Origin: a virus
Direction: 5' to 3' (one strand)
IMG/VR virus record: IMGVR_UViG_3300031977_001871
Location: 1-32,986 of that record
Length of the DNA stretch: 32,986 nucleotides
Below, piece after piece: positions 1-26,438 of this stretch (positions within the stretch are counted from its first letter, which is position 1; each line of letters starts with the position of its first letter). A model generated the notes under the pieces. The model made no database searches. It was given only the letters and a program-made list of their open reading frames with translations, and was not told the DNA's origin. Both the position numbers and the translations under genes were made by a program.

Positions 1-144
1 TGTTATATTGATAACTTTGTTGTACAGGTCTTCTTCTAGGTTCCTGATTGTTATATTGATAACTTTGTTGTACAGGTCTTCTTCTAGGTTCCTGATTGTT
101 ATATTGATAACTTTGTTGTACAGGTCTTCTTCTAGGTTCAGTGT
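1..144 (-). repeat. Near-perfect 48-bp tandem repeats inside the repeat gene
   Basis: Bases 1-48 and 49-96 are identical, and the third copy from 97 matches for 43 bases before diverging. Each 48-bp unit encodes one 16-residue unit beginning QQSYQYNN and ending RRRPV. The identity at DNA level, including silent positions, points to recent duplication or gene conversion, while units further right in the gene have diverged. The array continues beyond the window. Confidence 0.9.
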
Positions 145-1519
145 TATTATATTGATAACTTTGTTGTACTGGTCTTCTTCTAGGGCCAGTGTCATTATAT
201 TGATAACTTTGTTGTACTGGTCTTCTTCTAGGTGAAGGTTGGTTTACCTGAACTCTAGTTGGTCTTTGTCTAGATTCAGTGTTATTATATTGATAACTTT
301 GTTGTACTGGTCTTTGTCTAGATTCAGTGTTATTATATTGATAACTTTGTTGTGTACTTGCCTGTACCCTGTTGTGATACTGATAAGATTGTTGTACACT
401 AGTTTGTACCCTGTTATGATACTGATAAGCTTGTTGAGTAGAAGCTTGAACTCTATTATGATATTGATAAGTCTGTTGAGTTGATGCTTGTCCTCTGTTA
501 TGATAAGTATATCCTTGTTGTACTGGTCTCTGTCTTGTTACCCTATTATGGTACTGATATGCCTGTTGTACTGGTCTACGTCTTGGTATCCTATGATGGT
601 AGGTATAAGCTTGTTGTACAGGTCTACGTCTAGGTACTCTATTGTGGTACGTATATGTTTGTTGTGTACTTGTTTGTATCCTGTTATGATAAGTGTATGC
701 CTGTTGTACTGGTCTTCTTCTAGGTACTCTATTGTGGTACGTATATGTTTGTTGTACTGGACGTTGTCTACCTACCCTGTTATGGTACTGATACGATTGT
801 TGTACTGGTCTTCTTCTTGGTACTCTATTGTGATAAGTGTACGTTTGTTGAGTAGAAGTTTGTACCCTATTATGGTACTGATACGTTTGTTGTGTAGAAG
901 CCTGACCCCTATTATGGTAAGTGTACCCCTGTTGTACTACACGTTGTCTATTAACCCTGTTATGATACTGGTATGATTGTTGTACTGGTCTCTGTCTTGG
1001 TACCCTATTGTGATAGACATAAGTCTGTTGTACTGGTCTCTGTCTTGGTACCCTATTGTGATAGGTGTATCCTTGTTGTACTGGTCTCTGTCTTGTTACC
1101 CTATTATGGTAACTATAAGTTTGTTGGACTGGTCTACGTCTCTGTACCCTGTTATGGTACGTATAGTTTTGTTGAGTATTCTGTTGAACACGATTGTGAT
1201 AAGTGTAATCTTGTTGAACACTCGTTTGAACACGATTGTGATACTGATACGTTTGTTGTGTAGATGCTTGTACTCTGTTATGATATTGATACGACTGTTG
1301 CACAGTGAATTGGTAAGGTTGTTGGAAGTTATAAGGTCTTGTTCCAACTGCTGGTCTAGTAGCAATTACTTGGGCTGGCATCTGTCCTGATGCCTTTATC
1401 CATCCAGTAGGTGTCTTTGTATAGACAGAATCAACTGCCGACCATTCTGTTGGGGATGTCTTTACCCAACTACCTGTTGTATTTACCCACCCCGTAGGGT
1501 TCTTAATTCGTTGTGCCAT
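1..1519 (-). CDS. YxY[HN]N tandem-repeat protein, second copy, C-terminus cut by window edge
   Basis: The frame is open from the ATG at 1519 to the window edge with no stop; the 3' end lies outside. About 506 residues are visible. Residues 1-55 are Trp-rich, with short repeats of the form PTGWVN, GSWVK, PTEW and PTGWIK. From about residue 66 onward the protein is almost entirely a tandem array of units such as QQTYQYHNRVQAST (14 residues) and QQTYSYHNRVPRRRPV (16 residues), passing to QQSYQYNN units near the edge. It is a paralogue of the protein at 8717-10954. It starts 13 bases after the stop of the 767-residue fibre gene, so it is probably co-transcribed with the fibres. I recognise no family. 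The composition (Q, R, Y, N, no Cys seen) and position suggest a virion fibre or a scaffold, but this is inference. The long stop-free frames on the opposite strand result from the repeats. Confidence 0.85.
   Translation of the reverse strand, partial: MAQRIKNPTGWVNTTGSWVKTSPTEWSAVDSVYTKTPTGWIKASGQMPAQVIATRPAVGTRPYNFQQPYQFTVQQSYQYHNRVQASTQQTYQYHNRVQTSVQQDYTYHNRVQQNTQQNYTYHNRVQRRRPVQQTYSYHNRVTRQRPVQQGYTYHNRVPRQRPVQQTYVYHNRVPRQRPVQQSYQYHNRVNRQRVVQQGYTYHNRGQASTQQTYQYHNRVQTSTQQTYTYHNRVPRRRPVQQSYQYHNRVGRQRPVQQTYTYHNRVPRRRPVQQAYTYHNRIQTSTQQTYTYHNRVPRRRPVQQAYTYHHRIPRRRPVQQAYQYHNRVTRQRPVQQGYTYHNRGQASTQQTYQYHNRVQASTQQAYQYHNRVQTSVQQSYQYHNRVQASTQQSYQYNNTESRQRPVQQSYQYNNTESRQRPTRVQVNQPSPRRRPVQQSYQYNDTGPRRRPVQQSYQYNNTEPRRRPVQQSYQYNNQEPRRRPVQQSYQYNNQEPRRRPVQQSYQYN
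145..1320 (-). repeat. Degenerate 42/48-bp tandem repeat array
   Basis: The rest of the array in the same gene. Units code for QQxYxYHNRV or QQxYxYNN followed by either a 4-residue linker (14-residue unit, 42 bp, e.g. QAST, QTSV, QQNT) or a 6-residue linker (16-residue unit, 48 bp, e.g. PRRRPV, TRQRPV). The two lengths alternate irregularly. The frame is never broken. Confidence 0.85.
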
Positions 1520-1532
1520 ATTATATTAACTC

Positions 1533-3836
1533 TTAAGAGTAAGTTATCCATACATCTCCAACTTGCCCAGCACCTGATGTGGGGGCAGAAGAATGTATGA
1601 AAGTGTTTCGAAATGCTCCGTCTGAAGCACCAATGGTTGTAAAACCTGTAGTACCTTTACCAGTAACTGATAATGCATCCCCGATAGTTACATCATCGGG
1701 TAGACCTATTGTTACTGTTGCATTTTCACTACCTGAACCTGAGACTGTAATCTCATTTGCAGTTCCTGATATTCCTGATACGTAATTTCCTGTTGTGTCT
1801 GTTGCTAATGCAACTGAGTTTGCTTGTATAGTTGTGCTTATGGATATACCTGCTGAACCGTCAAAGTTTGCAGTACCAACAACATCTCCTGAAAGTGCTA
1901 TTGCTCTTGTCGTTGCTAATTTAGTAGCTGTAGATGCGTTACCTGTTACATCACCAGTGACATCACCATAAAGTCTTCCTGCTTGTATGTTTGCATTAGT
2001 GAGTGTTAATGCACCAGTAGATGCACCTGTTGCCGTTGTGGTTGCAAATCTAACTCTATCTGAACTTTCATCCCAACCTACGAAAACATTATCACCAGTA
2101 GAACCTCTTTCAAGAATAAGACCTAAGTCATTAGAGTTTGCACCCGTGTTACCTGAACCAAGTTCAATCAATGCATCTTCGATTGTTGTATTTGTTGCAC
2201 TGTTTGTTACTGTAGAACCATTGACTGTTAGGTCACCAGTGACTACTACGTCACCACTTGCATTTACGTTTGCGAATGTTACATTACTGTTTGTTGCAAC
2301 TGCCTGACCGATACTAAATGCACCACCTGAATATGATACACCAGTTCCAGCACTTAGATGAGCTCTAACTTCTGATGCACTTGGGCCTGTATATGTGATA
2401 ACACCAGTAGATGAATTGTATGCAAGTGAACCATCTCCACCTGAATCTGTTACTGATATAGCTCCTCTTGCATCTGAATCTGCATACATTGTAGGTTCTG
2501 AGTATGAGATTACACCTGATGTTGAGTTATATGCTAAATCACCACTTACTGAAATTGAACTTCTTGCATTTGCAGTTGTGAATTTAGTTACACTAAATGC
2601 ACCTGTTGATGAGTTATAAGATAGGTCACCAGCTGCAGATAATAAACCTCTTACTTCTGCGTCTGTTCTTTCTGTAAATGAGAATGCACCAGTTGAACTA
2701 TTATATGATAAATCACCACTTGCAGATACTAATCCTCTGATACTTGCATCTGATAAACCAGCAAGTGTAAGTGTTCCAGCTGCATCGTCATATGTTGATG
2801 TGATGTTTGTTCCACCAATTATCAATCCATTTACGATGTCTTCTATTTCTTCTTCAGTTTTTCCTGAAGAGTTGATTGTAAGTGTTCCGTTTGCATCGTC
2901 ATATGATGTTGTTATGTTAGTACCAGCAGTGACTAATGCATTTACTCTGTCGTCTACTCTTTCGTTTGTGAAAAATAGATTTCCATTTTCTGATAAATCA
3001 CCTGTGTCTAAAGTAACTGAACCACCAAGGGATACGGTGTTTGAGTTAATTGATAATGAACTGTTAGAAAGTTTTCCGTTAACAATAGAACCTGCTAACA
3101 TATCATTTGTGATACCACCAGCTTTTACTTGAACTGTATCTGATGCAAGTTCTAAAGAACTGTCATCTACTTGAACTGCAAGTGTTACTGCACCTGAAGT
3201 TCCACCACCAGTCAAACCATCTCCTGCTGTTACAGCTGTGATGTCTGCAGAGTTTGTGTTTGCAACTGTAAGTGTATTAGCTACATCATCATATGTTAAT
3301 GATACACCAGTTCCTGCTGTAAGTAATCCATTTACTCTATCGTCTACTCTTTCGTTTGTAAAATAAAGGTTTGTTGACCCTTCTGTAATCTCGTCTGTAT
3401 TATCTTTACCCGCTACTTGAGAATCTACATATGCTTTAATCGATTGTTGTGTTGCAGCGTGAGTTGCAGAGTTTGAAGCCATGTTGTCTTCATCTTTGAA
3501 ATCGATTGCGATGTCGTCTGCATTTACAGTGATACCTGTACCAGCACCAACATTAAGTGTTGCATCACCTGAAGTTGCAGTACCTGTTAAACCAGCACCA
3601 GCGTTAACTCCAGTAATATCACCGACATTACCTGTAATTGTTAGTTGGTTAGCTGCATCATCATATGATAATGAGATACCTGAACCTGCTTGTAAAAGAC
3701 TTGCAACTCTATCGTCCACACTTTCATTAAGTGCAGTTGCAGAAATGGAACCTACATATGTTCCGTCTGATTGGATGACCTCTGTTCCACTAACTGATAG
3801 TCCATTCTTGACATTAAAATTCTTTTCACCTGCCAT
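1533..3836 (-). CDS. Tail fibre-like repeat protein, 767 residues
   Basis: Long, Ser/Thr/Gly/Asp-rich beta fibre protein. Near residues 155 and 287 it carries the fibre motif LYFTNERVDDRV or LFFTNERVDDRV, followed each time by a TAGTG..SYDD segment. Residues about 370-470 hold repeats of the type SASGDLSYNSSTGAFS. Near residue 535 there is a GDLTVNGSTVT segment leading into a globular insert, and near 640 a NASTATKLATTRAIALSG segment typical of phage tail fibres. The C-terminus ends in GDVWITYS, resembling the GHLWYVV end of the 908-residue fibre. Its ATG overlaps the stop of the preceding gene (TAATG at 3834-3838), so translation is probably coupled. A virion fibre role is well supported; where it attaches is not known. 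Confidence 0.85.
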   Translation of the reverse strand: MAGEKNFNVKNGLSVSGTEVIQSDGTYVGSISATALNESVDDRVASLLQAGSGISLSYDDAANQLTITGNVGDITGVNAGAGLTGTATSGDATLNVGAGTGITVNADDIAIDFKDEDNMASNSATHAATQQSIKAYVDSQVAGKDNTDEITEGSTNLYFTNERVDDRVNGLLTAGTGVSLTYDDVANTLTVANTNSADITAVTAGDGLTGGGTSGAVTLAVQVDDSSLELASDTVQVKAGGITNDMLAGSIVNGKLSNSSLSINSNTVSLGGSVTLDTGDLSENGNLFFTNERVDDRVNALVTAGTNITTSYDDANGTLTINSSGKTEEEIEDIVNGLIIGGTNITSTYDDAAGTLTLAGLSDASIRGLVSASGDLSYNSSTGAFSFTERTDAEVRGLLSAAGDLSYNSSTGAFSVTKFTTANARSSISVSGDLAYNSTSGVISYSEPTMYADSDARGAISVTDSGGDGSLAYNSSTGVITYTGPSASEVRAHLSAGTGVSYSGGAFSIGQAVATNSNVTFANVNASGDVVVTGDLTVNGSTVTNSATNTTIEDALIELGSGNTGANSNDLGLILERGSTGDNVFVGWDESSDRVRFATTTATGASTGALTLTNANIQAGRLYGDVTGDVTGNASTATKLATTRAIALSGDVVGTANFDGSAGISISTTIQANSVALATDTTGNYVSGISGTANEITVSGSGSENATVTIGLPDDVTIGDALSVTGKGTTGFTTIGASDGAFRNTFIHSSAPTSGAGQVGDVWITYS

Positions 3837-8365: not shown

Positions 8366-8698
8366 CTATCTTGTTACGCCGGGTGTTATTATTGCTTGTC
8401 CCTCGATAACTCGGGTCTTTACACCTGAACTATCTGTTATTATTAAATCATATACATACCTACCAGCTTTTAGACCTGTGGTTTGTGTATCTGTTAAAGT
8501 AAGTGTTACCTTACCAGTTGATGGAGTTATAGATGTACTAAACGTTTCTGCAATGGTTGTGGAACCATATGTTTTTCTTATTTGTGCAGCTGCAGAATAT
8601 CCATTCAAGTCTATGATATTATCACTAGTATCAGTGACATCGATAGTAACTTCGTAATCGGTGCCTTGGTCTATAAATATGTTTGCTATGATTGCCAT
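8366..8698 (-). CDS. Ig-like / BppU-type virion protein, 110 residues
   Basis: All-beta protein with the pattern MAIIANIFIDQGTDYEVTID, DLNGYSAAAQIRKTYGSTT, ..GKVTLTLTDTQTTGLKAG and RYVYDLIITDSSG. This is a small structural protein type common in T4-like marine phages, with a fold that resembles the N-terminal domain of BppU baseplate proteins and Ig-like domains. It is the right size for a single domain. A TATAAATA box ends only five bases before the ATG and no Shine-Dalgarno is seen. Probably a small virion surface or appendage protein. Confidence 0.82.
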   Translation of the reverse strand: MAIIANIFIDQGTDYEVTIDVTDTSDNIIDLNGYSAAAQIRKTYGSTTIAETFSTSITPSTGKVTLTLTDTQTTGLKAGRYVYDLIITDSSGVKTRVIEGQAIITPGVTR

Positions 8699-8716: not shown

Positions 8717-10954
8717 TTAAGTGTTCGGGTCTGTCAATTGTGAAGTTGGTACACTTTGGTGAGTCTTTTTCAATGTACCACTGTCATTTATATAGACTTC
8801 ATCCATTTTTCTTAATGTACCAGCATCGTTAATCCATATCTGTTTGATTTTTGCAAGAGGCCCGATTGTTCTTGTTGATGGGAACGGTTGTCGTACTGGT
8901 CTACGTCTTGGTATCTGATTATGATAGTTATAAGTCTGTTGCACAGGTCTACGTCTAGGTACCCTATTGTGATACGAATAAGTTTGTTGTAAATTTTTCT
9001 GTCTTGATACTCTATTGTGATATGTGTAATCTTGTTGCACACTTCTTTGTCTATCTACTCTATTGTGGTATTGATACGACTGTTGCACACTACGTTGTCT
9101 TGATGACCTTTGTAATACCTGAACCCTAGCTGGTTTTTGTCTAGTTTCTTGTGCATTTATTGGTACTCTAACAGGTCTTCTCTTTGACTCACTATTGTTA
9201 TACTGGTATGTTTGTTGTACTGGTCTTTGTTTAGTTATAACCTGATTCACCTGAACTCTTGTTGGTCTTTGTCTTGTTACGGCTTCATTTACTTGAACTC
9301 TAGCAGGTCTTTGTCTTGACACACGTTGTAATACCTGAACCCTAGCTGGTTTTTGTCTTGATACTACTTCATTAACCTGTACTCTTACTGGTCTTCTTCT
9401 ATCTTCATCTACGTTTCTCTGAGTTCTTACAGGTCTACGTCTTGGTACCTGATTATGATACGAATAAGTTTGTTGAGTAGTCACCTGTTTTTCATTTAGA
9501 GTTCCACTTGGGAATGCCGGTGTTGGTGTTGATGATGCAGCCAAAGTAACACCTGAGACAAATGTCTCTTGTCTTGCATATCCTCTAGGTCTTATCCTTA
9601 CAAAATAACCATCATTATCTCTCAATCGAAGAGGCACCTGGCCACCTGGCGTTGGTGCCGCTTGAACCTGTGATGTAAAGTCTCCTACATTTTCCCATGC
9701 AAGTTTAATTTGTTGACCACTATTAAGTTTAATAGCATACTGAGAAGCATTTGGATGTTGTGAAAGAAACTCAACTCCCTGAGTACCTTGTCCTTGAGGG
9801 TGTCCTTGTCTTTGTGGATTAGGTACACTTTGGTTTTGAGGTGCTGGTGAAGCTGGACTAAAGTCAGCTGCAAAGATTGTATTTTCTCCAACATACCTTA
9901 ATCTAGAATTCCATTGTCTTTGTACTTGACCGCTGGGGAATTGAACACCTGAGTAATTCCAAGTATTAGCAACAGCAGGTGCTACAGTATTTTGCATCCC
10001 AGTTCCAGTATAGTAAGGAGCTGCTGTTTGTGTGAATGAAGCAGTTGGCCCCCTGAAGAACATTGCACCCCTGAACGAATCACCTTCATGAAAATTTCCT
10101 GACCTTGTACCTGTTGGTGTAGGAAAAGGATATTGTTGAGGTATACCATTTATTTGTTGTTGCATTGGAAAACCCATAAACTCGAAAGAAGGTATGGTGC
10201 CTGTTACTTGACCATATGGTGTCTCCATCTTAATAGCCGCAGCATCACCCCCACCACCATATACACGCATATAATGAATGTAATTTGAGTGTGCTTGTGA
10301 CTGAACGGGTCTCTGTCTATTCTCAGTATTGTTATACTGGTACGACTGTTGAGTATTCTCTTGTGTTCTATTATGATACACATACACCTGTTGAGTATTC
10401 TGTTGAACACGATTGTGATAAGTGTAATCTTGTTGAGTAGATGTCTGTACTCTGTTATGATACTGGTATGTTTGTTGAGTATTCTGTTGAACACGATTAT
10501 GATAAGTGTAATCTTGTTGAACACTCGTTGGAACACGATTGTGATACTGATAATCTTGTTGTACAGGTCTCTGTCTAGCTACTCTATTATGATAAGTGTA
10601 TGTTTGTTGAGTATTTTGTTGTACTCTATTATGGTAAGTATATGGTTGTTGAGTATTTTGTTGTACCCTGTTATGATACTGATATGATTGTCTAGCAGGT
10701 CTCTGTCTTGTTACAACATTATTGTACTGATAGGTTTGTCTAGTAGGTCTCTGTCTTGTTACAGCATTATTGTACTGATAGGTTTGTCTAGTAGGTCTCT
10801 GTCTAGATTCTACGTTGTTATACTGATAACTTTGTTGAACAGGTCTTTGTTTGTTTTCTTGATTGTTGTACTGATATGACTGTTGAACAGGTCTTCTATC
10901 ATTGAAGGGTTGTTGAAAACTAGTCCCTGTATTGATATATGTTTCATTTGACAT
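8717..10954 (-). CDS. YxY[HN]N tandem-repeat protein, complete copy, 745 residues
   Basis: Four regions can be seen. Residues about 15-215 are a tandem array of QQSYQYNN/QQDYTYHNRV units with RQRP linkers. Residues about 216-485 are a unique region, rich in Gly, Pro, Phe and Gln, containing EFMGFPMQQQ, GAMFFRGPTASF and IKLAWENVGDFTSQV. Residues about 486-690 are a second array that mixes YxYHN units with a different 14-residue unit, RVQVNEVVSRQKPA. Residues about 700-735 are two copies of a short module (IWINDAGTLRKM, VYINDSGTLKKT) that is common in phage structural proteins. The protein is strongly basic (many Arg), with no signal peptide or membrane segment. SD AGAGGTG precedes the ATG. It sits between the main tail fibre and small virion proteins, so I infer a virion or fibre component. 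I do not recognise the repeat family. Confidence 0.9.
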   Translation of the reverse strand: MSNETYINTGTSFQQPFNDRRPVQQSYQYNNQENKQRPVQQSYQYNNVESRQRPTRQTYQYNNAVTRQRPTRQTYQYNNVVTRQRPARQSYQYHNRVQQNTQQPYTYHNRVQQNTQQTYTYHNRVARQRPVQQDYQYHNRVPTSVQQDYTYHNRVQQNTQQTYQYHNRVQTSTQQDYTYHNRVQQNTQQVYVYHNRTQENTQQSYQYNNTENRQRPVQSQAHSNYIHYMRVYGGGGDAAAIKMETPYGQVTGTIPSFEFMGFPMQQQINGIPQQYPFPTPTGTRSGNFHEGDSFRGAMFFRGPTASFTQTAAPYYTGTGMQNTVAPAVANTWNYSGVQFPSGQVQRQWNSRLRYVGENTIFAADFSPASPAPQNQSVPNPQRQGHPQGQGTQGVEFLSQHPNASQYAIKLNSGQQIKLAWENVGDFTSQVQAAPTPGGQVPLRLRDNDGYFVRIRPRGYARQETFVSGVTLAASSTPTPAFPSGTLNEKQVTTQQTYSYHNQVPRRRPVRTQRNVDEDRRRPVRVQVNEVVSRQKPARVQVLQRVSRQRPARVQVNEAVTRQRPTRVQVNQVITKQRPVQQTYQYNNSESKRRPVRVPINAQETRQKPARVQVLQRSSRQRSVQQSYQYHNRVDRQRSVQQDYTYHNRVSRQKNLQQTYSYHNRVPRRRPVQQTYNYHNQIPRRRPVRQPFPSTRTIGPLAKIKQIWINDAGTLRKMDEVYINDSGTLKKTHQSVPTSQLTDPNT
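8885..9495 (-). repeat. C-terminal repeat array of the 745-residue protein
   Basis: Mixed array coding for YxYHN units (16 residues) and RVQVxxxVxRQ[RK]P units (14 residues). The RVQV units are found only in this array and form a consecutive block at about 9100-9400, flanked by YxYHN units on both sides. Confidence 0.8.
10310..10910 (-). repeat. N-terminal repeat array of the 745-residue protein
   Basis: About thirteen units in tandem. The first units (right end) are the 16-residue QYNN..RQRP form; later ones are the 14-residue QQxYxYHNRVQQNT form. The same order change, N-type and H-type units in blocks, is seen in the second repeat gene at 1-1519. Confidence 0.85.
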
Positions 10955-10977: not shown

Positions 10978-13704
10978 TTATACCACATACCACAAATGTC
11001 CATTGTTTGTACCTGAAACACTTGAGGGAGCTGTTGAAACTACTTCATAATCTGATTCGACAAAGTCTGAATCTATCTTAACACCTTTCCTTGTATTTAT
11101 AGAGAGAACACCACTACTATGTGTAAGACCATTACCTGCTACTGAAGACTTAAGTCTTATCTCACCACCATCACCAGCTGCATGGAACTCTAATCCACCA
11201 CTTACATTTAAGTCTGCAGAAATTTTACCTGTTGATGAATTGTAGTCAATACCTGGCCCACCTGACAAAGCTCCTCTTGCATTTGTATCACTATATTGTG
11301 CAGCTGCAGAGAAAGAAAGTGTATTTGCAGTATCATCGTAAGTTACAGTGATATTACTGTGAGTTCCACTAGTAATCATTCCAGCTGCAGCGTCTTGAGC
11401 TCTTTCAGTTGTAAAGTACTGTGTACCACTTGTACCAGTTGCAGAGGGGTCTTCTGTCAAGTTACTTGTATTAGCTGCTGCTATTCTAGCATCTGCTCTT
11501 GCATTTGTAAAGTAAAGGTTTGTCCCTTCTGATAAATTTGTTGTTGAGAAACCACTCAATGATACAGATGCATTTAACTTATCATTATCATTATCGTGAG
11601 TAAATGAGATACCACTGTGTGTCCCACTAGTAATTAGTGTTGCAGACGTATTTCTAATATATTCGGGGTCGACTGCAAATTCTAATGTACCTTCATTGTT
11701 GTCATCATCATTATATGTTGTAGATATACCTGTATGTGAACCATTTGAATTTACTATTAAATTTGCAACAGCATCTCTTGCTCTTTCAGGAGTGAAGTAT
11801 AAGTTTGTTGAACCTTCTGCAAAACTGTCGGTGTTTTCTCCAAGCGTATGAGGTGCAAAACGATTATTAACCCCATCCCATGTGAGTGCTTGTCCAGCTG
11901 CAATACCTGAGATAGTTACATCTGACAAATCACCAATACTTGCAGCTCCTATTCTTGCATCAGCTCTTGCATTTGTAAAATATAAGTTAGACCCCTCAGT
12001 AATATCACCTGAGTCTCCACTCATCTCACTGAGTTCGTCTTGTAAATCTAATTGTCCATCAACATATGTTTTGACTGCTAACTGTGAAGGAATTAAAGTG
12101 TCTGATGCACTTGCAAAAGTATTGTCTGTATCAATAGCTGCTTGTACTCTTGCATCTGCTCTTGCATTTGTATAATATAAGTTTGCAGGGTTTTCATCGA
12201 TGTGAGAAGTATTTAATTCTATGTTTGCACTTCCATCAAAAGATACACCTGATATATTTCTTGCAGTTTCTAATACTGTTGCACTTGCAGCGTTACCACT
12301 TGTGTCTTGATTACCTGTTTGGTTAACGCCAGGCAAATTGATATTTGCACTTCCGTTGAAGGATACACCACCTATTGTTCTTGCAGTCTCTAAAGTTGTT
12401 GCTGTACTTGCATTACCAACTAGATTACCTGTTGTAGTATCAATATATGCATTTGCAAATCTAACACCATTTGAACCTAAGTCTCTTGCACTATCTCCAT
12501 CGGGAATAATATCACTATCAAGGACACCAGTAAATGTAACTGTGTCTGCACTTGTATTACCTAAGTTTACGTTACCATCAAGATTGGTTTGTCCATCTAC
12601 TGTTAGAGTTGAATTAAAATCTACGTTTCCATGTACTTCTAGTGTAGTTGAAATGTCAACACTTCCATCTTGGTTCAACGTACCTACGTTGTGTATACCA
12701 TCGGTTGTTGTAGAACCATCAACATCTAGATTACCCTTAATGTAAGTGTTACCTGTTGCAGATGCAACTGTAAACTTATCAGTATTGACATCAAAGTCAC
12801 CACCAATGTGTCCTGTTCCTGATGCATCTAAATTACCGTTTAGGTCTAGATTACCATCTATTGTTGTTCCGTCTAATGTAGTTGCACCATCTACGTTTAG
12901 GGTTCCATCGATGTCTGCATTACCGTTTGCATTGATGTTACCAGCAGATGTAATAGATACACCTGTTGAACCGAATCCACCACCGACATCTAGATTACCT
13001 ACGTTGAAATCACCACTGAAGTCTCCTGTGACACCCCCTGTGATGTTTCCTGAACTAATTGATAGTGTGTTGTCTGTAAGTGTAGGTGCAGATAGTGTAT
13101 GACCTGTATCGAGGTCTACATCACCATTGATGAATGTTTTACCTTCTATCTGAACTACGTAACCTGATTGTAATGTTGTGACAATTGAAGCAATGTCACC
13201 GTTAATAATAACACCACTATCGTTGTTATTATAAATTGTGTTCTCTAGTGTTTCAGTCCAAAATGTTTGTACTGCAGTTTGTCCTGCTACATCAAGGAAT
13301 GAACCTGTAAATGCAACCACTCTGATAACATCACCAGCTGTTGCACCTGATGTAAGTGTAACCCTAGTGTGATTACCGTTTGCATTTACATTTGATATTG
13401 TGAAATCTGTTGAGAGTTGTTGTAAGTCACCGTTTTTAAATACGAGGAATCTGTGGTCTCTAAACTCTAATATGTTTTGGTCGGGTGAACTGTCTGCACC
13501 ATCGAATACTGTTTGACCACTAGTTGCAGTATAAATGAATCCTTGAAAAAAGAATTCTCTATCTCTCAAATCATTTACTGCATCAACAAGAGTAGTTTTA
13601 TCCTGAGTACGTAAGCCACCAATATCCCCAACATCTGATGCTAGTTCGTTATATGACTGTCTCCACTCTTCTAGTGTAGTATGTTGACTAACTGTTTTGG
13701 CCAT
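10978..13704 (-). CDS. Major tail fibre-like protein, 908 residues
   Basis: N-terminus MAKTVSQHTTLEEWRQSYNE is a conserved virion-attachment-type start of fibres in marine T4-like phages. Residues about 55-130 hold the module FIYTATSGQTVFDGADSSPD...FLVFKNGDLQ. Residues about 180-400 are Gly/Asn/Asp-rich repeats (NGNADIDGTLNVDGATTLDG). Residues about 430-500 have two STAT.LETAR.I.GVSF.GSANI segments. From about 505 to 770 there are five LYFTNARADAR-type motifs with EGSTNLYF linkers. The C-terminus is SSVSGTNNGHLWYVV, like the end of the 767-residue fibre. Its ATG overlaps the 3' end of the 70-residue gene by 17 bases, with SD GAGGA. A side or long tail fibre is the best call. The receptor is unknown. 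Confidence 0.88.
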   Translation of the reverse strand: MAKTVSQHTTLEEWRQSYNELASDVGDIGGLRTQDKTTLVDAVNDLRDREFFFQGFIYTATSGQTVFDGADSSPDQNILEFRDHRFLVFKNGDLQQLSTDFTISNVNANGNHTRVTLTSGATAGDVIRVVAFTGSFLDVAGQTAVQTFWTETLENTIYNNNDSGVIINGDIASIVTTLQSGYVVQIEGKTFINGDVDLDTGHTLSAPTLTDNTLSISSGNITGGVTGDFSGDFNVGNLDVGGGFGSTGVSITSAGNINANGNADIDGTLNVDGATTLDGTTIDGNLDLNGNLDASGTGHIGGDFDVNTDKFTVASATGNTYIKGNLDVDGSTTTDGIHNVGTLNQDGSVDISTTLEVHGNVDFNSTLTVDGQTNLDGNVNLGNTSADTVTFTGVLDSDIIPDGDSARDLGSNGVRFANAYIDTTTGNLVGNASTATTLETARTIGGVSFNGSANINLPGVNQTGNQDTSGNAASATVLETARNISGVSFDGSANIELNTSHIDENPANLYYTNARADARVQAAIDTDNTFASASDTLIPSQLAVKTYVDGQLDLQDELSEMSGDSGDITEGSNLYFTNARADARIGAASIGDLSDVTISGIAAGQALTWDGVNNRFAPHTLGENTDSFAEGSTNLYFTPERARDAVANLIVNSNGSHTGISTTYNDDDNNEGTLEFAVDPEYIRNTSATLITSGTHSGISFTHDNDNDKLNASVSLSGFSTTNLSEGTNLYFTNARADARIAAANTSNLTEDPSATGTSGTQYFTTERAQDAAAGMITSGTHSNITVTYDDTANTLSFSAAAQYSDTNARGALSGGPGIDYNSSTGKISADLNVSGGLEFHAAGDGGEIRLKSSVAGNGLTHSSGVLSINTRKGVKIDSDFVESDYEVVSTAPSSVSGTNNGHLWYVV
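11094..11101 (-). promoter_or_regulatory. Possible internal late promoter, TATAAATA
   Basis: Exact late box on the minus strand inside the 3' end of the 908-residue fibre gene, about 140 bases upstream of the ATG of the repeat protein at 10954. The distance suits a promoter for that gene, but the bases also code for conserved-looking fibre sequence (INTRKG), so chance is possible. Confidence 0.35.
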
Positions 13705-25952: not shown

Positions 25953-26438
25953 TTATACTACTGTTGCACCGTTTGATTCAGCAATTGAATACCATGCAGA
26001 ACCGTCCCAAAAACAAATAACTGCTTCACCCTTACTGTCTAAGACAATTTGGTTTGAAGATGCTGAGGATGAACCCCAACTTGTTACTGTGATGTTTGCG
26101 TCTGCAGCTGCATCGCCTGGGTCTGTTGTCATGATAATAATTTTTAACTGACCGACATGGTTACCATTATCCAATGTGTATGCAATGTCACTGTTAGAAC
26201 CTGAGATATCAATCTTAGTTACTAGTGTGTCATTACTACCCAAATTAGTTTGTGCAGTTGTTTCTGTTTCAATAGAATCACAAGCTAAAGTACTTGGGAT
26301 GTTTTGGAACAAAGTTGCCAGTGACATTTTTTTGTTTACTGGTGTACCGCCGGGGTTATCTACAATGTGCAATAAGTCATCCGTACCAACTTCTGTTGAT
26401 GCTATGGATGACAATGCTGTTATCTTTTTATCTGCCAT
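25953..26438 (-). CDS. Small virion protein, 161 residues
   Basis: The N-terminus (MADKKITALSSIASTEVGTD, DLLHIVDNPGGTPVNKKMSL) is a common start of small phage structural proteins that attach to larger assemblies. The rest is all-beta, with a C-terminal part (VGQLKIIIMTTDPGDA, EAVICFWDGSAWYSI) that looks like a capping domain. SD AGGAGA is clear. It sits between gp6 and the gp7-like gene, an insertion compared with T4 order. A baseplate decoration or short spike role is plausible but not shown. Confidence 0.78.
   Translation of the reverse strand: MADKKITALSSIASTEVGTDDLLHIVDNPGGTPVNKKMSLATLFQNIPSTLACDSIETETTAQTNLGSNDTLVTKIDISGSNSDIAYTLDNGNHVGQLKIIIMTTDPGDAAADANITVTSWGSSSASSNQIVLDSKGEAVICFWDGSAWYSIAESNGATVV

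What the first reader, a model, noticed from the sequence alone, without database searches (positions are those of the whole stretch)
8717..10954. A basic YxY[HN]N / RQRP tandem-repeat virion-locus protein of no recognised family
A 745-residue protein is largely made of two arrays of QQxYxYHNRV or QQxYxYNN units with Arg-rich linkers, around a unique 270-residue centre, and ends with two INDxGTL modules known from phage structural proteins. Rows of Tyr, Gln and Arg at fixed spacing could form a rigid fibre, bind DNA or polysaccharide, or form a phase-separating scaffold. Seen in sequence: repeats and composition. Inferred: virion role.
Basis: partly seen in the sequence, partly recalled or inferred. 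Interest (0 to 1): 0.75.

Follow-up and report, generated by a model that had tools for sequence, protein, structure and literature searches.

The report
Two-faced repeat fibre of marine phages
The odd tyrosine-, glutamine- and arginine-rich protein is one of a pair of long repeat proteins in the tail-fibre region of a marine bacterial virus; it belongs to a widespread family for which I found no description, whose repeats change length almost only in even steps, as a long strand with two different faces would.

Summary
The repeats are real: a 745-residue ORF on the MINUS strand (8717-10954), two arrays of 14/16-residue QQxYxY[HN]N units around a 275-residue centre. It is not an orphan. A longer paralogue (P2, window 2-1519; 1373 aa in a longer contig) has the same plan; the two centres are 48% identical. 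Its end 'caps' place it in a large family of marine T4-like phage proteins (120 IMG/VR stretches from one capped scan) at the same two sites beside tail-fibre genes. There each site usually holds two ORFs, the first often ending in a variable domain (some Hint/intein-like); here each site is one fused ORF. Nothing better than E 0.3 was found in 50,697 phage records; Pfam and PHROGs name only the last ~35 residues. Most surprising: array indels between homologues are even in length (181 even, 4 odd), while neighbouring proteins show 78 even, 177 odd; aromatics and prolines keep opposite parities. This argues for a two-faced extended beta structure. In 41 of 41 loci with repeats, a glycosyltransferase-like gene and a gp13-like gene, two 2OG-Fe(II)-oxygenase genes are present too. 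Best reading: a beta-strand fibre of the host-recognition cluster displaying a variable domain. Virion location, fold and modification are inferred.

The parts
8717..10954 (-). P1, 745-aa repeat protein (locus A): N-cap, array, centre, array, C-cap
10886..10954 (-). P1 N-cap (aa 1-23, MSNETYINTGTSFQQPFNDRRPV)
   Evidence: profile of 15 distinct relatives' caps, own phage left out: E 1.3e-12
10310..10885 (-). P1 first array (aa 24-215), 14- and 16-residue units
9485..10309 (-). P1 central domain (aa 216-490), 48% identical to the P2 centre; no Pfam or PHROG match, no PDB sequence match below E 0.6
8885..9484 (-). P1 second array (aa 491-690)
8720..8884 (-). P1 C-cap (aa 691-745) with two INDxGTL motifs and THQSVP
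   Evidence: profile of 12 distinct relatives' caps, own phage left out: E 1.4e-24, aa 692-740; phrog_13729 9.7e-6, aa 702-734
2..1519 (-). P2, paralogous repeat protein (locus B), cut by the window end at 506 aa; 1373 aa in contig G001 (10 base differences in the shared part)
1382..1519 (-). P2 N-cap (aa 1-46, NPTGW...KTPTGW)
   Evidence: E 7.8e-19 for the window ORF; profile of 29 distinct caps
8366..8698 (-). conserved neighbour after locus A; matches phrog_1084 (unknown) best and phrog_3304 'L-shaped tail fiber protein assembly' second
10978..13704 (-). conserved neighbour before locus A, tail-fibre-like protein (908 aa)
1533..3836 (-). conserved neighbour before locus B, structural-protein- / tail-fibre-like (767 aa)

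Best explanation
P1 and P2 are paralogous fibrous proteins of the tail-fibre / host-recognition module of an uncultivated marine T4-like phage. Short conserved caps probably anchor the chain (inferred). Between the caps run long arrays in which residues alternate between two faces: in this phage Tyr, Val and Glu on one, Pro and His on the other. The chain is therefore probably extended, beta-strand-like, and assembles sideways into a stiff, basic, Tyr/Arg-rich fibre (inferred from the even-only indels). The non-repeat domain in the middle, which sits where relatives carry very different domains, is displayed by the arrays and probably contacts the host surface (inferred). Shown: repeats, paralogy, family membership by caps and synteny, parity rule, protein-level conservation despite codon divergence, location. 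Not shown: presence in virions, fold, ligand.
For: Cap profiles built without this phage hit P1 at 1.4e-24 and 1.3e-12 and P2's N-cap at 5.7e-18 to 1.2e-17 in the full-length copies. Conserved synteny of both loci: of 15 complete locus-A regions 14 hold two repeat ORFs and 1 holds one; of 37 complete locus-B regions 37 hold two. Parity: in this phage group 184 of 184 Y.Y[HN] spacings of up to 60 residues are even; in 136 distinct arrays of relatives 5058 of 5150 adjacent aromatic spacings are even (shuffled mean 0.457). In-array indels: 181 even, 4 odd in 69 homologue pairs, and 12 even, 0 odd in our 4 pairs; control neighbours 78 even, 177 odd in 210 pairs, same aligner. Faces: Pro 4912 to 44 opposite the aromatics in relatives, 303 to 2 here. 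Identical residues in different P2 units use different codons in 40-45% of cases, so the protein sequence, not recent DNA duplication, is held. The centre is the most divergent part in P1 (60% identity against 82 and 73% for the arrays, G001 against G003) and in 2 of 3 P2 pairs. A host-recognition cluster with tail fibres between baseplate and neck genes is described for pelagi- and cyanomyophages in PMC7029224 (abstract and 12 passages seen).
Against: No virion proteomics. AlphaFold2 gave no usable model of the centre (mean pLDDT 30) or of the first 190 residues of P2 (mean 37.5; cap 49-63, arrays 24-41), which equally fits disorder. P2's C-cap match is weak: 0.009, 0.009, 0.078 and 0.77 in four copies, while shuffles reached 0.39. 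Units within one gene share ancestry, so spacing parity is not made of independent events; the indel test is better, but its pairs are related too, and all its 185 array gaps come from locus-B relatives (the 7 locus-A pairs had none). Arg/Lys, Gln and Asn do not keep one parity (0.66, 0.53 and 0.43 even). The register is not kept across the centre in G003. In P2 of G001-G004 the centre is no more divergent than the arrays (83.3 against 83.5 and 84.3%). Family loci were found with one repeat pattern and are biased to it.
Confidence: 0.5

Rival explanations
1. The arrays are intrinsically disordered, sticky Tyr/Arg linkers (bottlebrush tethers or condensate formers) that join the caps to the central domain.
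For: Low-complexity Q/R/Y/T/N composition, net charge about +59; AlphaFold2 confidence in the arrays 24-41.
Against: Disorder does not predict even-only indels (181 to 4; control 78 to 177) nor opposite parities for Pro and aromatics.
Confidence: 0.22
2. A basic DNA-binding or DNA-condensing protein carried in the head.
For: pI 10.6 (P1) and 11.0 (P2 part).
Against: Both genes lie beside tail-fibre-like genes; in relatives the first ORF often ends in a variable non-repeat domain. One phrog that matches the 767-aa neighbour is classed 'head and packaging' (phrog_697), so the setting alone does not settle it.
Confidence: 0.1
3. A substrate of the phage's own curli (type VIII) export system, forming extracellular amyloid.
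For: The relative G003 (1 of 3 contigs searched) encodes CsgG (1.6e-52) and CsgF (4.9e-17), both over the curated cut-offs; beta-type alternation.
Against: No N-terminal signal peptide in P1 or P2 (read by eye); no curlin match in Pfam at E up to 1 in P1 and the window part of P2; the curli gene group has two candidates of its own with signal-like N-termini (by eye) and sub-cut-off Curlin_rpt matches, 0.058 and 0.0032.
Confidence: 0.06
4. A non-virion protein, for example one acting in fibre assembly or in superinfection exclusion.
For: Adjacent to a gene that matches a fibre-assembly phrog; no proteomic data.
Against: Length, repeats, two paralogues per phage and variable attached domains suit a structural part better (inference).
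Confidence: 0.12

Closest known systems
Host-recognition cluster of pelagimyophages and cyanomyophages (PMC7029224; abstract and 12 passages seen)
   Same: Similar setting: tail-fibre genes between baseplate and neck genes of T4-like marine phages, with glycosyltransferases; a CsgG/CsgF pair, which the paper reports for such phages, is in relative G003.
   Different: The passages seen name YHYH, concanavalin A, collagen, major-tropism-determinant and YadA domains, not this array family. A search of the paper library for four of the family's repeat strings gave 0 papers.
Phage C48C1 (OQ984149.1, Kyanoviridae) CDS0201, 3348 aa, annotated hypothetical
   Same: Tyr/Arg-rich arrays around non-repeat domains between tail genes; inside the segments taken as arrays even spacing of aromatics 313 of 357 and of Arg 166 of 174.
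   Different: Different repeat words (TYDGTYSRTR, GNYSRDF) and none of this family's caps seen by eye; common descent not shown. The parts set aside as non-array also leaned to even spacing (aromatics 115 of 170, Arg 109 of 121), so my segmentation is rough. C48C1 is the nearest isolate by a terminase fragment of relative G004 (61.5%).
T4 fibritin / whisker (wac), recalled, not fetched
   Same: Locus B lies, as I recall of wac, between fibre genes and the neck gene gp13.
   Different: Fibritin is recalled as a trimeric coiled coil; the arrays here have a two-residue period instead of heptads.
Silk-like, suckerin-like and mussel-foot-like repeat proteins (recalled)
   Same: Two-residue facial alternation or Tyr/Pro/basic repeats; stiff or adhesive fibres.
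   Different: No sequence relation tested or claimed; phage origin, caps and displayed domain.

Membership tests
The capped array family of marine T4-like phages (described here; no library entry found) | Conserved N-cap and C-cap | tested here: met
   P1 both caps, 1.3e-12 and 1.4e-24; P2 N-cap 5.7e-18 (G001 copy). P2 C-cap inconclusive, 0.009 to 0.77
The capped array family of marine T4-like phages (described here; no library entry found) | Site: fibre gene, array gene(s), then phrog_3304-like gene (locus A) or glycosyltransferase-like gene (locus B) | tested here: met
   locus-B neighbours found in this phage's longer contig G001, the 484-aa gene there only in part
The capped array family of marine T4-like phages (described here; no library entry found) | Array words RxPFTYQ, QQPYPYIAN, QEPNIR | tested here: not met
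   This phage uses QQxYxY[HN]N and R[RQ]RP words; Y.Y[HN]N was counted 0 in the 60 of 149 relatives' ORFs that one search printed. Hence a divergent variant
The capped array family of marine T4-like phages (described here; no library entry found) | Two-residue register in the array | tested here: met
Curli / curlin | Curlin repeat and Sec signal peptide | tested here: not met
   No Pfam Curlin_rpt match in P1 or the window part of P2 at E up to 1; N-termini read by eye only
T4 fibritin (wac) | Trimeric coiled coil with foldon (recalled) | not tested
   Only the gene position was compared
Known tail-fibre or depolymerase families in Pfam and PHROGs | Profile match over the array or centre | tested here: not met
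   No Pfam match at E up to 1; the only phrog match at E up to 0.1 covers aa 702-734

The most novel reading that the evidence does not exclude
These phages build a silk- or mussel-adhesive-like material: long two-faced Pro/Tyr/Arg strands, hydroxylated and then glycosylated in trans by the two 2OG-Fe(II) oxygenases and the glycosyltransferase-like protein encoded downstream, and in some relatives cut or joined by a C-terminal Hint domain, giving a covalently tailored adhesive fibre that carries a swappable host-recognition domain. Supporting facts: both oxygenase genes are present in 41 of 41 loci that hold repeats, the GT-like gene and gp13 (the loci were chosen by their repeats); the oxygenases pass Pfam's cut-off (1.7e-6 and 3.5e-21); Hint/intein matches 2.5e-7 and 1.2e-5, below the Pfam cut-off. 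Against: PHROGs files the first oxygenase under 'DNA endonuclease V' (phrog_274); PMC7029224 favours host lipopolysaccharide as target of such glycosyltransferases. That the enzymes act on the arrays is pure inference.
Probability: 0.2. Interest if true: 0.88.

Novelty: new variant of a known kind. Interest (0 to 1): 0.66.

Why it matters
Host recognition in marine T4-like phages rests in part on proteins that the libraries searched here do not name. One such family now has an anatomy (caps, arrays, displayed domain), a place, and a quantitative rule (indels of even length) that constrains its fold before any structure exists. The rule is cheap to test on any low-complexity phage protein, and the neighbouring oxygenase and glycosyltransferase-like genes turn the question of what the 2OG oxygenases of marine phages modify into a direct test.

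Tried and rejected
Orphan status: rejected by caps and synteny. A unique centre: rejected, P2 has it. Recent DNA slippage as the cause of the repeats: disfavoured by codon divergence and by the same order of unit lengths in the first 21 units of P2 in three strains; but the orthologous unit is the best match for only 11, 13 and 14 of 21 units, so some exchange between units is likely. Curli substrate: disfavoured. PDB relatives of the centre by sequence: two histone matches at E 0.61, taken as chance; of whole P1: none at E up to 1. Two AlphaFold2 jobs gave no usable model, so I ran no fold search. tblastn with P1, P2, the centre, one relative's array protein and one cap found nothing in the isolate phages, and a second cap only a chance-level match (E 0.3, 2 records of one Pectobacterium phage); BLAST's low-complexity filter weakens the array queries. 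That CDS0203 and CDS0204 of C48C1 are a glycosyltransferase and an oxygenase was my reading by eye; Pfam and PHROGs do not support it. In the S-RIM2 and Vibrio F86 proteins that matched CDS0201 I saw no arrays: F86 read whole, S-RIM2 only from residue 1401 on. Host: not settled; the single match in the species genomes lies in a contig binned as a Flavobacteriales MAG, while CsgG/CsgF recall SAR11 phages (PMC7029224). Papers: ten searches. The string searches for this family's and for C48C1's repeat words gave 0 papers each, as did C48C1 by name; I saw only listings with abstract starts, and no title or abstract start there was on this family; led to PMC7029224. Of PMC3037559 I saw the abstract start and five passages. 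NCBIfam and PADLOC were not searched.

Full report
What is there. The ORF at 8717-10954 is on the minus strand and gives 745 aa. It is made of 14- and 16-residue units, QQxYxYHNRVQxST and QQxYxYHNRVPRRRPV with [HN] and RVQVN variants, in two arrays around a 275-residue centre, and ends in a tail with two INDxGTL motifs. The repeats are far above chance (19 units against a shuffled mean of 0.001) and Tandem Repeats Finder sees 42- and 48-bp periods.

It has a twin. Searched against its own record, the protein matched itself and a second ORF at the window's low end. This P2 is cut at 506 aa by the window. In a longer IMG/VR contig, G001, where P1 is 100% identical and the shared part of P2 differs at 10 bases, P2 is 1373 aa. 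It too is array, centre, array, and its centre is 48% identical to that of P1. A 135-kb contig (G003) and a 72-kb contig (G002) carry homologues of both, a 17-kb contig (G004) of P2, and a 9-kb contig (G005) a P2 end. A scan with an alignment of five centres found the centre in four IMG/VR contigs, so this centre, and by what I saw this repeat dialect, are rare.

It belongs to a large family. From memory I knew of RSPFTYQ-type repeats in marine phage sequences; a degenerate pattern for them hit 120 stretches of IMG/VR before the scan stopped at its limit. All 120 loci held an ORF with the motif, 149 in all. These proteins share this phage's caps: profiles made only from those loci hit P1's C-cap at 1.4e-24, P1's N-cap at 1.3e-12 and P2's N-cap at 5.7e-18 to 1.2e-17 in the full-length copies; P2's C-cap is weak, 0.009 to 0.77, the last no better than shuffles. 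The gene order is the same: locus A is 908-aa-fibre homologue, array gene with the YIN-type N-cap, array gene with the HQSVP C-cap, phrog_3304-like gene; locus B is 767-aa-fibre homologue, array gene with the KTPTGW N-cap, array gene with the WDG..WP C-cap, 484-aa glycosyltransferase-like gene, and on to gp13-like neck genes. Where both flanks are present, locus A holds two array ORFs in 14 of 15 and one in 1 of 15, and locus B two in 37 of 37. In this phage each site is one fused ORF with a domain in the middle. One more single-ORF form, 378 aa with both locus-B caps and no inserted domain, lies in a contig of a Flavobacteriales MAG, the only confirmed match of 25 candidate stretches in the species genomes. 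The 120 loci come from one pattern and are not independent; some share a contig or are near-identical.

The first ORF's end varies. Among 90 first-ORF proteins, 56 tails with different first 60 letters were listed; 29 of the 56 are 145 residues or longer, some of these near-copies of each other, and some short ones are cut by the locus end. They include several unrelated-looking domains and Cys-started domains, most of which end in HN, that look by eye like Hint/intein modules. Of ten proteins scanned, four of them Hint candidates, three gave Hint or intein matches in Pfam (2.5e-7, 1.2e-5 and 0.006), none over the curated cut-off; the fourth gave none. Variation at this place is what a host-contact part would show. 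In this phage the centre is likewise the most divergent part in P1 (60 against 82 and 73%) and in two of three P2 pairs, but not clearly in G001-G004 (83.3 against 83.5 and 84.3%).

The two-residue rule. In this phage group all 184 spacings of up to 60 residues between successive Y.Y[HN] motifs are even (16, 17, 50, 50 and 51 in five proteins); the parity is not kept across the centre in G003. In 136 distinct arrays of relatives, 5058 of 5150 adjacent aromatic spacings and 4769 of 4820 Pro spacings are even, against shuffled means of 0.457 and 0.461; Arg/Lys (0.66), Gln (0.53) and Asn (0.43) are not so ordered. As units descend from one another, spacing alone could be inherited, so I counted length changes between homologues: 181 even and 4 odd inside arrays in 69 pairs (47 of the even ones are exactly 2 residues), against 1 even and 4 odd outside arrays; all array gaps come from locus-B pairs, as the 7 locus-A pairs had none. 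Four pairs of this phage group gave 12 even and 0 odd in arrays, 5 even and 7 odd elsewhere. Neighbouring non-array proteins of the same loci gave 78 even and 177 odd in 210 pairs, 126 of them single residues, with the same aligner settings. Pro lies opposite the aromatics 4912 to 44 in relatives and 303 to 2 here; Val and Glu lie with the aromatics in both; His lies opposite them here (125 to 5) but with them in relatives (789 to 14). A two-residue period fits extended beta strands and does not fit helices (3.6 or 7) or polyproline/collagen (3); that step is textbook knowledge plus inference. The protein sequence is what is conserved: identical residues in different P2 units of one gene use different codons in 40-45% of cases, and 26-34% of identical array residues differ in codon between strains.

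Neighbours. Downstream of locus B in this phage's own longer contig (where the 484-aa gene was seen only in part), in G003 and in G004 lie a 484-aa protein, two predicted 2OG-Fe(II) oxygenases and gp13-like neck genes. The oxygenases pass Pfam's cut-off (1.7e-6 and 3.5e-21); PHROGs, however, files the first under 'DNA endonuclease V' (phrog_274, 3.1e-14) and the second under 2OG-Fe(II) oxygenase. The 484-aa protein has no Pfam match at E up to 0.01 and no PDB match at E up to 0.1; its C-terminal half matches proteins of 18 isolate-phage records, some annotated glycosyltransferase or NDP-sugar transferase and some hypothetical, and its homologue in L155 has a sub-cut-off Glyco_transf_8 match (0.0024). 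In 41 of 41 loci with arrays, this gene and gp13, both oxygenases are present; as loci were chosen by their arrays, the reverse link was not measured. Modification of the Pro/Arg/Tyr-rich arrays is an attractive idea but untested; PMC7029224 (passages seen) proposes host lipopolysaccharide as the target of glycosyltransferases in such phages.

Context. The setting resembles the host-recognition cluster described for pelagi- and cyanomyophages (PMC7029224). No isolate phage record matched P1, P2, the centre, one relative or one cap, and a second cap gave only an E 0.3 match. The nearest isolate by a terminase fragment of G004 is phage C48C1 (61.5%). It has in its fibre region a 3348-aa protein with different Tyr/Arg words but a similar tendency to even spacing (aromatics 313 of 357, Arg 166 of 174 in the segments taken as arrays; 115 of 170 and 109 of 121 in the rest), which hints at a wider class.

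Verdict. Structure prediction failed, so fold and virion location remain inference.

Noticed in passing
L044:5006-7105, L097:374-2053, L096:3773-5458 (relatives): Array proteins that end in a Hint/intein-like domain just before the second array gene; in L044 and L097 a Cys start and an HN end, with no Cys/Ser/Thr after it, are seen by eye; Pfam matches below the cut-off.
   Followed up: partly
L019:9614-13796 (contig G003): A curli-type gene group in a T4-like phage: CsgG, CsgF, a FecR-domain protein and two proteins with signal-like N-termini and weak Curlin_rpt matches that may be the missing curlin subunits.
   Followed up: partly
L032:34820-44863 (phage C48C1): A 3348-aa Tyr/Arg/Gly repeat protein with inserted domains, annotated hypothetical, with mostly even spacing of aromatics and Arg.
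   Followed up: partly
L011:8834-11138 and homologues: Two 2OG-Fe(II) oxygenase genes present in 41 of 41 loci with array genes, a glycosyltransferase-like gene and gp13.
   Followed up: partly
window 2-1519 against G001: Ten base differences in P2; eight of them form two clusters with a similar pattern 96 bases apart, as unit-to-unit conversion or assembly of repeats would give.
   Followed up: no
window 25953-26438 (-): 161-aa protein with a Phage_depo_C match over Pfam's cut-off (4.6e-6), a depolymerase-type C-terminal domain.
   Followed up: no
L155: A T4-like phage contig binned in a Flavobacteriales MAG carries a 378-aa single-ORF form with both locus-B caps and no inserted domain.
   Followed up: partly
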